From assembly GCA_946183925.1 (NCBI GenBank), contig CAMHDS010000005.1, forward strand, positions 1 to 64,000: a DNA stretch of 64,000 nucleotides. The letters run 5' to 3'. Below are positions 33,197 to 39,346 of this stretch, one piece after another (within the stretch, counting starts at the first letter, position 1; each line of letters starts with the position of its first letter). The position numbers and the translations under genes are program-made. The DNA comes from an uncultured Fibrobacter sp. (GTDB lineage Bacteria > Fibrobacterota > Fibrobacteria > Fibrobacterales > Fibrobacteraceae). A model generated the notes under the pieces. It was not told the origin of the DNA and did no database searches. It saw nothing but the letters and a program-made list of their open reading frames with translations.

Positions 33197-34819
33197 ATGG
33201 TAAAAACGGCTGCGAAACCGGGATTTTTTGTTCAGGACAGGTACCTTTACAGCAAGGACAACGAGAAGGTCATCCTTCGCGGGGTGAACCATATGTTCAT
33301 CTGGACCGACCGGGAAGGCAAGACCATTCCCGAAATCGCAAAGACCGGCGCCAACTGTGTCCGTATCGTCTGGAACACCCGCGGTCGTATCAGCGACCTG
33401 GACAATATCATGGGGCTATGCATAGCCAACGGCATGATTCCCATTCCCGAGATTCACGATACCACGGGTAACTGGGACCGCCTCCCTGAAGCTCTGGACT
33501 ACTGGCTTCGTGAAGAAACCCTGCAGGTGCTCTCCAACCACCAGGAATACATGATTCTGAACGTGGGTAACGAGCCCGGCGCCGGCGAGATTCCCGAAAG
33601 CGAATTTTTTGACGTGTACCGCATGATTGTGACCAAGATGCGCGCTGCCGGAATCCGCGTGCCCATCATGATCGATGCCGACATGTGGGGTCAGGACGAA
33701 AAGATTCTCCTTTCCGTGGGCCCGAAGCTTTTGCAGGCGGATCCGGAACATAATTTGATTTTTTCCATCCACATGTGGTGGCCTAGCGAAAAGCACGACC
33801 CTGCCCGTACAGGTTTTGCCACCGTTCAAGAACGTATTACCGCTACACTCGAAAAATCTGTGGAACTGAAGCTGCCCTTTGTGGTGGGCGAATTTGCGCC
33901 GGTGGCTGCCGGTGGCGCAAAAGAAATCCCCTACAAGCATATCATGGCCGAGGCGGAACGCCTGAACATTGGTTGGATGGCCTGGAGTTGGGGTCCCGGA
34001 AATTACGACAGCCCCGAAATGGACATGACCGCCCATAGTTCCTTCAATACACTTGTGGGCTGGGGCAAGGAAGTGGCGGTGGATAGTCCCCTTGGAATTC
34101 AGAACACCAGCGTGATTCCGAATTTTATCCAGAACAAGGACTACGTCACCGGGTTCCAGGGAACAGGGACAAACCTTATCCAGAACGGTGATTTTTCTGA
34201 TGAAAACCCGCTGGAAAACTGGGTCACCGATTTCTGGGGTGGCAAGGCCGACGTCAAGGTGGAAGATGGTGTGGTCCACTTTGACATTTCCAAGGCTGGC
34301 AAGGAAACTTGGGGCCTGCAGTTCAAGCAACATCTGCCTCTCCGAAACGGGGTCACCTACATTTTCAGTATGCGTGCCAAGGCAGACAAGCCCCGTACCT
34401 TGAATGTGAACATCAAGAAGGATGCCGAAGTCTATACGCCCTATGCCAACGGTCGTATCCTGGACTTGAGCACAAGCTGGCAGAGTTTCAGCTGGAAGTT
34501 CACCATGAAAGAGGACTCCGATGCCGAAGCCCTGCTGATTTTCGACATGGGCGGCACTCCGATTTCTTGGTCTCTGGCCGACATCTCCTTGGTGCAGGCT
34601 AGGAGTGTGGCGGACCGCCTGAACCGCACCTTCCAGCGCAATGTGCAGAAGAACTCCGGCTACTTCAACGCCCCTAATGGGCCGTGGCAGCTCTTGCTAT
34701 ACTCTGCCAAGGGCGATCTTTTGCAGGTCCTTGACGAAGGCAAGGGTGGCGAGGGCATGCGCTCTTACCCGAAACTGGAACAGAGCGGCATCATGGTGGT
34801 TAAAGACAAGCTTAGTTAG
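33197..34819 (+). CDS. GH5-type glycoside hydrolase with CBM4/9-like module and C-terminal sorting-like domain; no signal peptide visible
   Basis: VILRGVNHMFIW...NCVRIVWNTRG...MILNVGNEPG...VVGEFAPVA; NGDFSDENPLENW; C-term GPWQLLLYSAKGDLLQVLDEG...GIMVVKDKLS. Confidence 0.8.
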   Translation: MVKTAAKPGFFVQDRYLYSKDNEKVILRGVNHMFIWTDREGKTIPEIAKTGANCVRIVWNTRGRISDLDNIMGLCIANGMIPIPEIHDTTGNWDRLPEALDYWLREETLQVLSNHQEYMILNVGNEPGAGEIPESEFFDVYRMIVTKMRAAGIRVPIMIDADMWGQDEKILLSVGPKLLQADPEHNLIFSIHMWWPSEKHDPARTGFATVQERITATLEKSVELKLPFVVGEFAPVAAGGAKEIPYKHIMAEAERLNIGWMAWSWGPGNYDSPEMDMTAHSSFNTLVGWGKEVAVDSPLGIQNTSVIPNFIQNKDYVTGFQGTGTNLIQNGDFSDENPLENWVTDFWGGKADVKVEDGVVHFDISKAGKETWGLQFKQHLPLRNGVTYIFSMRAKADKPRTLNVNIKKDAEVYTPYANGRILDLSTSWQSFSWKFTMKEDSDAEALLIFDMGGTPISWSLADISLVQARSVADRLNRTFQRNVQKNSGYFNAPNGPWQLLLYSAKGDLLQVLDEGKGGEGMRSYPKLEQSGIMVVKDKLS

Positions 34820-35735
34820 CGGAGCTCAGGTCCAAAACGTCTTTCAAGAAGGCCGTAACTTTATTCAGGTAACCGCCGACGATTTTAGGTATGTGGCGGT
34901 GAGAGTAGACGTATCTACCAAGCAGTTGTGACTTGGAAAAAAATCCCAGTTCTCGAGAATCCGGGGCGTGTTTCAGTTTTTCACTGATGATGAAATAGTA
35001 ATCATCCTGAGCAACGATTTTTTCGATAAGGCTTGAATCCGCCTTGTTACGGAATTCGCGCTTTATTTTTACAGGCGTGTTGCCGATTTCTCGCTGGAAT
35101 ACCTGAAGTTCCAGCAGGTAACGGTCTTGCCAGGGGAGAAGGTCCACCTCTTTCAGACTGACTTGACGATTGCCGAGTTTTAGAGCTCCCAACATGTCTA
35201 GGGGGAGTTCCCGTTCACCCTGCCAAAGGGATGTTTTGACATAGAAGGGGATCTCCTGCTCCTGCATGATGCTGATGGCGTAATCTTGCTCAACATCGTT
35301 CAGTTTGCTCATGTAAAGGGTATCGCCCTTCTTGGGGACATCTATTTTTCGTGTTTCGATGAACACCTCTTCGTCGTTAAGCTGCTTGGTCTTGTTCTTG
35401 ACACGAACCTTACCGTTGTTGTAGAACTTGACCTTATCGCCTGGCATGGCCAGCACTCTGCGGACCAAAGTTTCCCTGTTCTTTTGGCGAGCCCAGACGA
35501 TGTCATCGACCTTTAGTTTGTCGATACAGCGGGGAAGCTTGCAAATCCAGACCACGTCGTCTTCCTTGAACTTGGGATACATGGCGGAATCGCTGAGCCT
35601 TAAGGGCTCCAATACGTAAAACCTGCCGTACAAGGCCGCAGCGAAAAATAGCACCAACAGAAACACCAAGAAAAAGATAAATGTCTTGGAATTCCGTAGC
35701 TGACGCTTGTTGACGATGTGCCTGAGAGAAGCCAT
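34812..35735 (-). CDS. Signal peptidase I-like (S26) protein lacking canonical catalytic residues
   Basis: N-terminal TM; LSDSAMYPKFKEDDVVWICKLP (canonical SGSMxPTL) and ETLVRRVLAMPGDKV (canonical KRVxGLPGD); directly downstream of lepA. Confidence 0.8.
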   Translation of the reverse strand: MASLRHIVNKRQLRNSKTFIFFLVFLLVLFFAAALYGRFYVLEPLRLSDSAMYPKFKEDDVVWICKLPRCIDKLKVDDIVWARQKNRETLVRRVLAMPGDKVKFYNNGKVRVKNKTKQLNDEEVFIETRKIDVPKKGDTLYMSKLNDVEQDYAISIMQEQEIPFYVKTSLWQGERELPLDMLGALKLGNRQVSLKEVDLLPWQDRYLLELQVFQREIGNTPVKIKREFRNKADSSLIEKIVAQDDYYFIISEKLKHAPDSRELGFFSKSQLLGRYVYSHRHIPKIVGGYLNKVTAFLKDVLDLSSAN

Positions 35736-35756: not shown

Positions 35757-37577
35757 CTACTCGCCGTTTCCGTTGGAGTTGTCCGAAAGGGAAAGCACGG
35801 CCAGGAACGCCTTTTGCGGGACTTCTACCGAGCCGATGCTCTTCATGCGCTTTTTGCCTTCTTTCTGCTTTTCCAGGAGCTTGCGCTTGCGGGTGATGTC
35901 GCCGCCATAGCACTTGGCCAGCACGTCCTTGCGCACGGCCTTCACGGTAGAGCGGCTGATGATCTTTCCGCCGATGGCGCCCTGGATGGCCACGTCGAAC
36001 TGTTGCCGTGGAATCAGGTCCTTCAGCTTTACGCAGATGGCATTGGCGTAGGTGTTTGCCTTGTCCCTGTGGATAATCACCGAGAAGGCGTCCACCGGGT
36101 CGCCGTTCAGCAAAATGTCCAGCTTCACCAGGTTGTTCCGCCGGTATTCGCTGGGAGCGTAGTCCAGGCCGGCATAACCGCGGCTCACGGACTTGAGCCG
36201 GTCGTAGAAGTCGAACATGATTTCGGCGAGAGGCAGGTTATACTTGAGAATAACCTTCTCCTCGTCGATGTATTCCATGGTCTCGAATTCCCCGCGTTTT
36301 TCTTCGCAGAGGGTCATGAGGGCGCCAACGTAGTCCTTGGGCGTAAAAATTTGGGCCTTTACGTAAGGCTCTTCGATGTGGTCGTAACGGCTGGCATCGG
36401 GGAGCTTGGAGGGGCTCTCGATTTTCACCATGGAGCCGTCGCTCATGTGCACATGGTATTCCACGTTGGGGACGGTGGTAATGATATCCACGCCGAATTC
36501 TCTGTCCAGGCGTTCCTGCACGATTTCCATGTGCAAGAGTCCCAGGAACCCGGTGCGGAAACCGAAGCCCAGGGCGTCGGAAGTTTCCGGCTCCCAGCTC
36601 AGGGCGGAATCGTTCAGGCGCAGTTTTTCCAGGGCTTCGCGCAAATCCTTGTAGTCTTCGGGGTCGATAGGGTAGATGCCCGAATAAATCATGGGCAAAA
36701 TATCCTTGTAACCCGGGAGCGGTTCTGCGGCAGGATTTGCGGTATCGGTCAGAGTGTCGCCGATTTTGACATCGCTGATGGTTTTCACGTTGGCAAGCAC
36801 GTAGCCTACCATGCCCTCGGTTAGTTCTGGCCGGGGGTCGCGGTGCATGCTGAAGGTTCCCACTTCGGTCACCATGTATTCTCCGCCGGTTTTCATCATG
36901 CGGATTTTCATGCCGGCCTTGAGGGTACCTTCTACGATGCGGATGTAGTTGATGACCCCGCGGTAGCTGTCGTAGACGGAGTCGAAAATTAGGGCCTTCA
37001 GGGGTTTTCCACTGTCGCCCTTGGGGGCGGGAATCTCGTCAACGATTTTGTCCAGGACTTCGCCTACGTTCAGCCCCGTCTTTGCCGAAATCCGGGGAAT
37101 CTTGTCCGGGTCATAACCAAGCAGGTCGCCTACCAGCTGGGCGATGTGGTCTGGCTGCGCTCCTGGCAGGTCCACCTTGTTCAGCACGGGAATCACCGTC
37201 AGGTCGTTTTCGATGGCGAGGTAAAGGTTGCTGAGGGTCTGGGCCTCGATGCCCTGGCTTGCGTCCACTACCAGGATAGCGCCTTCGCAGGCCGCCAGGG
37301 ATCGGCTCACCTCGTAGGTAAAGTCCACGTGCCCCGGGGTGTCAATCATGTTCAAAATGTATTCTTGGCCGTTCCGTTCGTAAACCATGCGGATGGCGTG
37401 GGCCTTGATGGTAATGCCGCGCTCCCGTTCCAGGTCCATGTCGTCCAGCAGCTGGTTCGTCATCTCGTTCTTGGAAACGGTCTTGGTCAGTTCGATAAGG
37501 CGGTCGGCCAGGGTGGATTTTCCGTGGTCGATATGGGCGATAATGCTGAAATTTCTGATGTTGTCGTTTTGCGGCAT
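35757..37577 (-). CDS. lepA: Elongation factor 4
   Basis: [60 protein letters not shown]. Confidence 0.97.
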
Positions 37578-38233: not shown

Positions 38234-39346
38234 ATGGCTACAAAGAAAAAAGCTTCACCTGTGAAGAAAGCCCCTGTAAAGGCTGCTGCCAAGAAGGCTG
38301 CTCCTGCTAAGGCTCCCGTAAAGGCTGCGGCCAAGAAGGTCGCTGCGAAGGCGCCTGCTAAAAAGGCCGCCCCTGCGAAGGCGCCTGCAAAGAAGGCTGC
38401 TCCAGCGAAGAAGGCGGCCCCCGCCAAGAAGGCTGCTCCTGCGAAAAAAGCGGTTCCTGCGAAGAAAGCCGCACCTACCAAGAAGGCAGTGCCTGCAAAA
38501 GCACCTGCCAAAAAGGTTGCCCCTGCAAAGAAGGCCACACCGGCTAAGAAGGTTGCTCCAGCAAAGAAACCGGCGGTGAAAGCTCCCGCTAAGGCTCCTG
38601 CCAAGAAGCCTGTTCCTGCAAAGGCTCCTTCCATCAAGAATTCCGCCCCCGCCAAGGAAACTCCGAAGGCCACCAAGAAGGACAAGGTCGAAAAGGCCGT
38701 CGAGGTCAAGAAGGTCAAAGGTGGCAAGAAGCCTGCGCCAGCTCCTGTCAAAACGGAAACCGTAGCCGAAGAGGTGGTGGAAACGGCTGCCGAAACCAAG
38801 GGCACAAAGCAGGGCAAGGGCGGCAAACCCAAGATTGAACTGCCTTTTGCAGTGCTCCTGGAAGGTGGCAAACGTCTTTCCAAGACCATCATGTTCTACG
38901 AAATCGACGAGCACGAAGATGGTGCCAACAAGAAGAAAGTGTCCTCTGAACTCAAGAATCTGGAAAAGAAGCCCACCATGGCGATTCGCCACAAGGCTTC
39001 CCTTGCCGAAGAGACCCAGGAAGAGCTGACGGAACGTATCCTGAAGGAACTGGAAGAACAGAACCTGGCGTTCACCCGCGAGGCGGCCACTCAGATTTGC
39101 ACCCGCTGCAACAAGAACCTGGTCTCTCCGGAATTCTGGGTGGACAAGCACCTGGGTTACTGCGAAGAATGTGCCGCTATCCTCAAGCTGGGCCAGTCCA
39201 AAGAAGCTCGTAAGGTGGATTACCAGATGGGGCTTCTCGGCCAGGATTCCCTGGACGAAGAGGATGAGGATAATGAATTTATGGACGGCCCTGATGCCGC
39301 TGACCTGAAGGAAGCGGAAGAGGAACTGGCCGAACTGGACGATTAA
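38234..39346 (+). CDS. Histone H1-like Ala/Lys/Pro repeat protein with C-terminal zinc-ribbon domain
   Basis: About 150 residues of KKAAPAKKA-type repeats, then ICTRCNKNLVSPEFWVDKHLGYCEECAAI and an acidic tail. Confidence 0.8.
   Translation: MATKKKASPVKKAPVKAAAKKAAPAKAPVKAAAKKVAAKAPAKKAAPAKAPAKKAAPAKKAAPAKKAAPAKKAVPAKKAAPTKKAVPAKAPAKKVAPAKKATPAKKVAPAKKPAVKAPAKAPAKKPVPAKAPSIKNSAPAKETPKATKKDKVEKAVEVKKVKGGKKPAPAPVKTETVAEEVVETAAETKGTKQGKGGKPKIELPFAVLLEGGKRLSKTIMFYEIDEHEDGANKKKVSSELKNLEKKPTMAIRHKASLAEETQEELTERILKELEEQNLAFTREAATQICTRCNKNLVSPEFWVDKHLGYCEECAAILKLGQSKEARKVDYQMGLLGQDSLDEEDEDNEFMDGPDAADLKEAEEELAELDD

What the first reader, a model, noticed from the sequence alone, without database searches (positions are those of the whole stretch)
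34812..35735. Signal-peptidase-I homologue in the lepA-lepB position lacks catalytic Ser and Lys
Aligned to the SPase I motifs SGSMxPTLxxGD and KRVxGLPGD, this protein reads SDSAMYPKFKEDD and RRVLAMPGD: nucleophilic Ser -> Ala and general-base Lys -> Arg. I checked both codons on the DNA (GCC, CGC). The fold motifs and membrane anchor are kept. This points to a conserved pseudo-protease, perhaps a chaperone, regulator or quality-control factor for secretion, or to a shifted active site using the adjacent Ser.
Basis: partly seen in the sequence, partly recalled or inferred. Interest (0 to 1): 0.68.

Follow-up and report, generated by a model that had tools for sequence, protein, structure and literature searches.

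The report
Catalytically dead signal peptidase beside lepA
Rumen Fibrobacter and most sampled lineages of its phylum carry, in the usual place of the signal-peptidase gene, an old second copy that has lost its cutting residues but is still strictly kept, so databases call it an enzyme when it almost certainly is a non-cutting partner protein.

Summary
The gene at 34812-35735 (-) encodes a 307-aa membrane-anchored type I signal peptidase (SPase I) homologue, 21 bp behind lepA, with Ala51 (GCC) and Arg92 (CGC) in the Ser and Lys slots. It is not a local oddity. The same genome has an intact lepB elsewhere. The lepA-linked copy occurs in 11 of 11 sampled genera of the family and in several other families of the phylum. 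None of 108 distinct copies has both catalytic residues; 31 of 31 canonical paralogues do. A tree separates the two groups (100/96), which fits one old duplication. Selection is strongly purifying (dN/dS 0.04-0.06). The protease core is much less conserved than in canonical LepB (36-47% against 75-80%), while non-catalytic domain II is conserved almost as well (43% against 48%). The Arg is fixed in Fibrobacterales; the Ala is not (mostly Ser). The "adjacent Ser" alternative is not conserved. Best reading: a non-catalytic periplasmic binding or partner factor, like streptococcal SipA in fold and dyad loss; function is inferred, not shown. Inactive SPase I relatives are known (SipA, SpsA); a lepA-linked one this widespread in a Gram-negative phylum seems undescribed.

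The parts
34812..35735 (-). LepB-like pseudo-peptidase gene (307 aa), directly 3' of lepA
   Evidence: AlphaFold2 and Foldseek
35613..35687 (-). N-terminal transmembrane helix (residues 17-41)
   Evidence: predicted helix H17-41; hydrophobic stretch in the sequence
35583..35585 (-). Ala51, slot of nucleophile Ser90 of E. coli LepB
   Evidence: S/A/T in relatives
35460..35462 (-). Arg92, slot of general base Lys145 of E. coli LepB
   Evidence: Arg in 52 of 52 lepA-adjacent copies
35526..35543 (-). C65-KLPR-C70, conserved Cys pair of Fibrobacteraceae
35016..35381 (-). Domain II (residues 119-240), non-catalytic, also present in the canonical Fibrobacterota LepB
   Evidence: hhalign E 6e-14 over 242 columns; identities
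34965..34985 (-). Residues 251-257 (S...A here; C...C in most relatives), slots of E. coli Gly272 and Ser278 that contact the catalytic Lys
34953..34961 (-). Asp259-Ser260-Arg261, retained DSR part of the last conserved SPase box
   Evidence: invariant in A1
35757..37577 (-). lepA (EF4), conserved upstream partner, 21 bp before the pseudo-peptidase start

Best explanation
This is a non-catalytic paralogue of signal peptidase I. It most likely arose by one duplication of lepB before the sampled Fibrobacterota lineages diverged. One copy (elsewhere in the genome) stayed the working LepB; the other, in the ancestral lepA-lepB place, lost the Ser-Lys dyad and was kept. Inferred mechanism: an inner-membrane protein with its globular part in the periplasm. 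It binds rather than cuts, mainly through domain II, where the conservation now lies. The bound partner is probably LepB itself or a class of exported proteins, so that it works as a presenter, chaperone or regulator of signal-peptide processing or envelope assembly, as SipA does for pilins. In most Fibrobacteraceae two Cys pairs, one at the former Lys-pocket positions, probably form disulfides. Shown: homology, loss of the dyad, intact second lepB, conservation, selection and shift of constraint. Inferred: topology, binding, partners and disulfides.
For: No copy of 108 distinct sequences has both Ser and Lys; 31 of 31 canonical copies do. Arg in the Lys slot in 52 of 52 lepA-adjacent copies; Gln/Leu in f5, f7, f8 and one f9 copy. 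Present in 58 of 61 genomes of the family and in 45 of 45 good ones, 11 of 11 genera. Directly after lepA in 46 of 58 and in 52 of 57 loci. dN/dS 0.04-0.06 between the window copy and eight relatives, no stops. Canonical and lepA-linked copies are separate groups, 100/96. Between the same genomes, core identity is 0.36/0.47 here against 0.75/0.80 in canonical LepB, while domain II is 0.43 against 0.48. Fold match to SipA, TM 0.69-0.72 by target. SipA lacks the dyad, keeps the peptide cleft and is needed for pilus assembly (PMC4049620). Cys pairs are kept or lost together in all but 3 of 108; a DsbA-family protein is present in 31 of 31 Fibrobacter genomes.
Against: No experiment and no partner are known. 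Apart from lepA, no neighbour is conserved, so the operon does not point to a pathway. Most Fibrobacter copies still have Ser in the nucleophile slot, so a residual or altered activity is not formally excluded there. The peptide cleft was not measured: no coordinates were available. The gene is missing behind lepA in families f3, f4, f6 and one f5 genome, so it is not essential to the phylum. The rooting uses one outgroup; the support of the lepA-linked group on the E. coli root is only 84/74.
Confidence: 0.6

Rival explanations
1. It is an active peptidase with an altered mechanism: Ser51 (where present), or the neighbouring Ser, with Arg92 or another base.
For: Ser is in the nucleophile slot in 65 of 108 copies, always with Arg in the Lys slot. 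The fold is kept.
Against: The window copy has no Ser there. The neighbouring position is N/S/A/T/R/D/V/G; the residue after the Lys slot is K/R/S/N/W/Q. The oxyanion-hole Ser88 slot is Asp in 73 of 108. Candidatus Fibrimonas lost the whole box B. Other families have Gln/Leu. From general knowledge, SPase I needs the Lys as general base.
Confidence: 0.06
2. It is a dedicated non-catalytic subunit of the Fibrobacterota signal peptidase: LepB and the paralogue form a heteromer through the shared domain II. (A specific form of the best explanation.)
For: Both paralogues share domain II (hhalign E 6e-14 over 242 columns), and domain II diverges at similar rates in both (0.43 and 0.48). Both occur together in the genomes examined that have the paralogue.
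Against: Physical contact is untested. The genes are not adjacent. Some families keep LepB without the paralogue. A shared domain may simply be inherited.
Confidence: 0.2
3. It is a decaying duplicate on its way out, kept only as the tail of the lepA transcript.
For: The core has diverged, box B is deleted in Candidatus Fibrimonas, and the gene is absent in some families.
Against: dN/dS of 0.04-0.06, invariant residues W202, R226, D151, D259-R261, presence in 45 of 45 good genomes of the family, and survival away from lepA in Fibrimonas.
Confidence: 0.03
4. It serves the translation factor LepA (EF4) next door, for example as a membrane anchor or as a link between LepA and export.
For: The lepA linkage is kept in nearly all copies outside Fibrimonas.
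Against: lepA-lepB linkage is the ordinary arrangement in E. coli with an active LepB, so it is explained by ancestry; most of the protein is predicted to be periplasmic, whereas LepA is cytoplasmic.
Confidence: 0.04

Closest known systems
Escherichia coli type I signal peptidase LepB (peptidase S26A; PDB 1b12, 1t7d)
   Same: Fold, N-terminal membrane anchor, lepA-lepB gene order, DSR motif
   Different: Ser90 to Ala, Lys145 to Arg, Ser88 to Asp; GDNR box lost; domain II unlike that of E. coli in sequence
Streptococcus pyogenes SipA (PDB 4n31), signal-peptidase-like pilus assembly factor
   Same: SPase I fold without the Ser-Lys dyad; structural match TM 0.69-0.72 by target; non-enzymatic role in SipA (PMC4049620)
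   Different: SipA has Asp/Gly in the two slots, belongs to a Gram-positive pilus system and has a much smaller second domain; here a Gram-negative phylum, lepA-linked, with a large conserved domain II
Staphylococcus aureus SpsA, inactive SPase I homologue with active SpsB in the same genome
   Same: A genome with one active and one inactive SPase I; the inactive one lacks two conserved catalytic residues (PMC12445088)
   Different: A staphylococcal example called dispensable; here the inactive copy is an old separate group spread through a phylum
Canonical LepB of Fibrobacterota (own genome G000:C17)
   Same: Paralogue, shares core and domain II
   Different: Has Ser, Lys and GDNRDNSADSR in full; longer domain II; lies on another contig than lepA in this genome

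Membership tests
Type I signal peptidase (active, S26A) | SPase I fold with N-terminal membrane anchor | tested here: met
   Pfam, NCBIfam, AlphaFold2, Foldseek
Type I signal peptidase (active, S26A) | Nucleophilic Ser in box B | tested here: not met
   Ala51 (GCC)
Type I signal peptidase (active, S26A) | General-base Lys (E. coli Lys145) | tested here: not met
   Arg92 (CGC); Lys in only 1 of 108 copies, which lacks the Ser
Type I signal peptidase (active, S26A) | GDN motif ahead of DSR in the last conserved box | tested here: not met
   ISEKLKHAPDSR; only DSR is kept
Type I signal peptidase (active, S26A) | Signal-peptide cleavage | not testable with these tools
   needs purified protein or complementation
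Inactive SPase-I-like proteins (SipA, SpsA type) | SPase I homologue without the Ser-Lys dyad, with an active-type SPase in the same genome | tested here: met
Inactive SPase-I-like proteins (SipA, SpsA type) | Peptide-binding cleft kept | tested here: inconclusive
   fold match to 4n31, but no coordinates to inspect; core sequence is relaxed
SipA pilus assembly factor | Located in a pilus gene cluster | tested here: not met
   the only conserved neighbour is lepA

The most novel reading that the evidence does not exclude
Fibrobacterota run signal-peptide processing with a two-part machine: an active LepB and a non-catalytic paralogue joined through their shared domain II, a bacterial parallel to the non-catalytic subunits of the eukaryotic signal peptidase complex.
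Probability: 0.2. Interest if true: 0.75.

Novelty: new variant of a known kind. Interest (0 to 1): 0.5.

Why it matters
Inactive signal-peptidase relatives are known from a few Gram-positive bacteria. Here one has been kept as a separate group through most sampled lineages of a Gram-negative phylum that includes major fibre degraders, in the very place where lepB is expected. Annotation pipelines would call it signal peptidase I (all 11 distant members hit TIGR02227; the window copy passes its cut-off), so anyone choosing 'the' lepB by its lepA linkage in Fibrobacter would pick the dead copy. It also gives a clean test of what a signal-peptidase fold does without catalysis, with natural losses (f3, f4, f6) for comparison.

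Tried and rejected
Sequencing error or single-genome mutation: rejected by identical residues in independent assemblies. Pseudogene: rejected by dN/dS and open frames. The only signal peptidase of the genome: rejected, intact lepB on C17. Adjacent Ser as nucleophile, or the residue after Arg92 as base: rejected by variability. A functional clue from downstream genes: none conserved (GH5 cellulase in the window; trpBA-like, aro/tyr-like, transporter-like and other genes elsewhere, read by eye from the sequences). Literature on a Fibrobacter signal peptidase or an SPase I pseudoenzyme: nothing relevant among held papers. A paper on SpsA dynamics (PMC12414704) was not held. VKOR as disulfide generator: absent in 31 Fibrobacter genomes.

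Full report
Observation. The gene at 34812-35735 (minus strand) encodes 307 residues and is a type I signal peptidase (SPase I) homologue by Pfam, NCBIfam and fold. Ala51 (GCC) sits in the slot of the nucleophilic Ser and Arg92 (CGC) in the slot of the general-base Lys. The oxyanion-hole Ser88 slot is Asp49, and the Gly272 and Ser278 slots, which lie at the Lys in E. coli (PMC4049620), are Ser251 and Ala257. The gene follows lepA with a 21-bp gap, as lepB follows lepA in E. coli with 15 bp. Its 3' end overlaps by 8 bp the end of a convergent GH5/CBM4-9 gene.

The working enzyme is elsewhere. The same genome (80.9% complete) has one other SPase I, on contig C17, with PSGSMEDSL, DYIKRCV and GDNRDNSADSR intact. 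Canonical copies from 31 loci across families f1-f7, f9, f11 and f12 all have Ser and Lys.

The dead copy is old and widespread. Homologues occur in 58 of 61 genomes of the family, in 45 of 45 good ones and in 11 of 11 genera. Of those 58 loci, 46 lie directly behind lepA; the 12 that do not are all in one genus (g5) that matches Candidatus Fibrimonas. Outside the family a lepA-linked homologue was found in f2, f5, f7, f8, f9, f11 and f12, but not behind lepA in f3, f4, f6 and one f5 genome. Among 108 distinct sequences none has both Ser and Lys. The states are Ser/Arg 65, Ala/Arg 17, Thr/Arg 2, Asp/Arg 1, Gln/Leu 8, Val/Leu 1, Leu/Tyr 1, Gly/Lys 1, and 12 with box B deleted and Leu (Fibrimonas).

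Origin. A maximum-likelihood tree of 66 Fibrobacterota SPases and E. coli LepB puts all 31 canonical and all 35 lepA-linked copies on opposite sides of one branch (100/96), and both halves broadly repeat the order of the families. This fits one duplication before these lineages split. The lepA-linked half has weaker support on the E. coli root (84/74), some rows have long branches, and other phyla were not sampled, so an older origin is not excluded. Profile comparison joins the lepA-linked groups to each other (E 1.6e-25) and to the canonical LepB including domain II (E 6e-14).

Selection and shift of constraint. Between the window copy and eight relatives dN/dS is 0.04-0.06. For the same genome pairs, canonical LepB shows 75% and 80% identity in the two core parts and 48% in domain II; the lepA-linked protein shows 36%, 47% and 43%. 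The protease core has been freed, while domain II has kept nearly the same pace. Residues such as P134, D151, W202 and R226 of domain II are invariant in the family alignment. This is the main ground for placing the present function in domain II.

Cysteines. Four Cys (65, 70, 251, 257) are present in 82 of 108 copies; 11 copies have only the first pair (the window clade is among these), 11 have none (these should be the other families), and only 3 break a pair. Cys251 and Cys257 sit in the slots of E. coli Gly272 and Ser278. Pairwise loss suggests two separate disulfides, 65-70 and 251-257. A DsbA-family protein is present in 31 of 31 Fibrobacter genomes; VKOR is absent. Distances could not be measured because no coordinates are returned.

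How it probably works. With no dyad, an intact LepB elsewhere, strong selection and constraint on a non-catalytic domain, the likeliest role is binding. SipA of S. pyogenes is a solved precedent: same fold, dyad replaced by Asp and Gly, no peptidase activity, cleft kept, needed for pilus polymerisation (PMC4049620). It is a structural match to both models made here (target-normalised TM 0.69-0.73). S. aureus SpsA is a second inactive homologue (PMC12445088). The partner here is unknown. LepB itself, through the shared domain II, and a class of exported proteins are the two leading candidates. The operon gives no help, because only lepA is conserved next to it and that linkage is ancestral.

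Verdict. The shifted-active-site option is unlikely. The kind of thing is known; a lepA-linked, widespread Gram-negative group of this kind was not found in the held literature, which lacks most subscription papers. I put the claim 'conserved pseudo-protease' at about 0.93 and the fuller mechanism (binding factor acting through domain II) at 0.6.

Noticed in passing
L050-L053, L055-L062, L153-L157: In Candidatus Fibrimonas the homologue is shortened to about 255 aa, lacks box B altogether, and has left the lepA neighbourhood; in some loci it sits back to back with a gene that reads like proA.
   Followed up: partly
L086-L097, L100: Families f3, f4, f6 and one f5 genome have no signal-peptidase homologue behind lepA: natural losses useful for comparison.
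   Followed up: partly
window 34965-34985 and 35526-35543: Conserved paired cysteines of Fibrobacteraceae, one pair at the former catalytic-Lys pocket; the window clade has lost that pair as a pair.
   Followed up: yes
L072:2181-3149: The f11 copy is the only one with Lys in the general-base slot, and it keeps GDN in the last box, but has Gly for the nucleophilic Ser: it may show an early step of decay.
   Followed up: no
window 38234-39346: 370-aa protein with a long Ala/Lys/Pro-repeat N-terminal half and a C-terminal part with CTRCNKNL and CEEC motifs (possible zinc ribbon, DksA/TraR-like by eye); no Pfam hit.
   Followed up: no
G099:C96:2167-2685: At least one Fibrobacter genome shows a second long canonical-type SPase I copy besides the usual one.
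   Followed up: no
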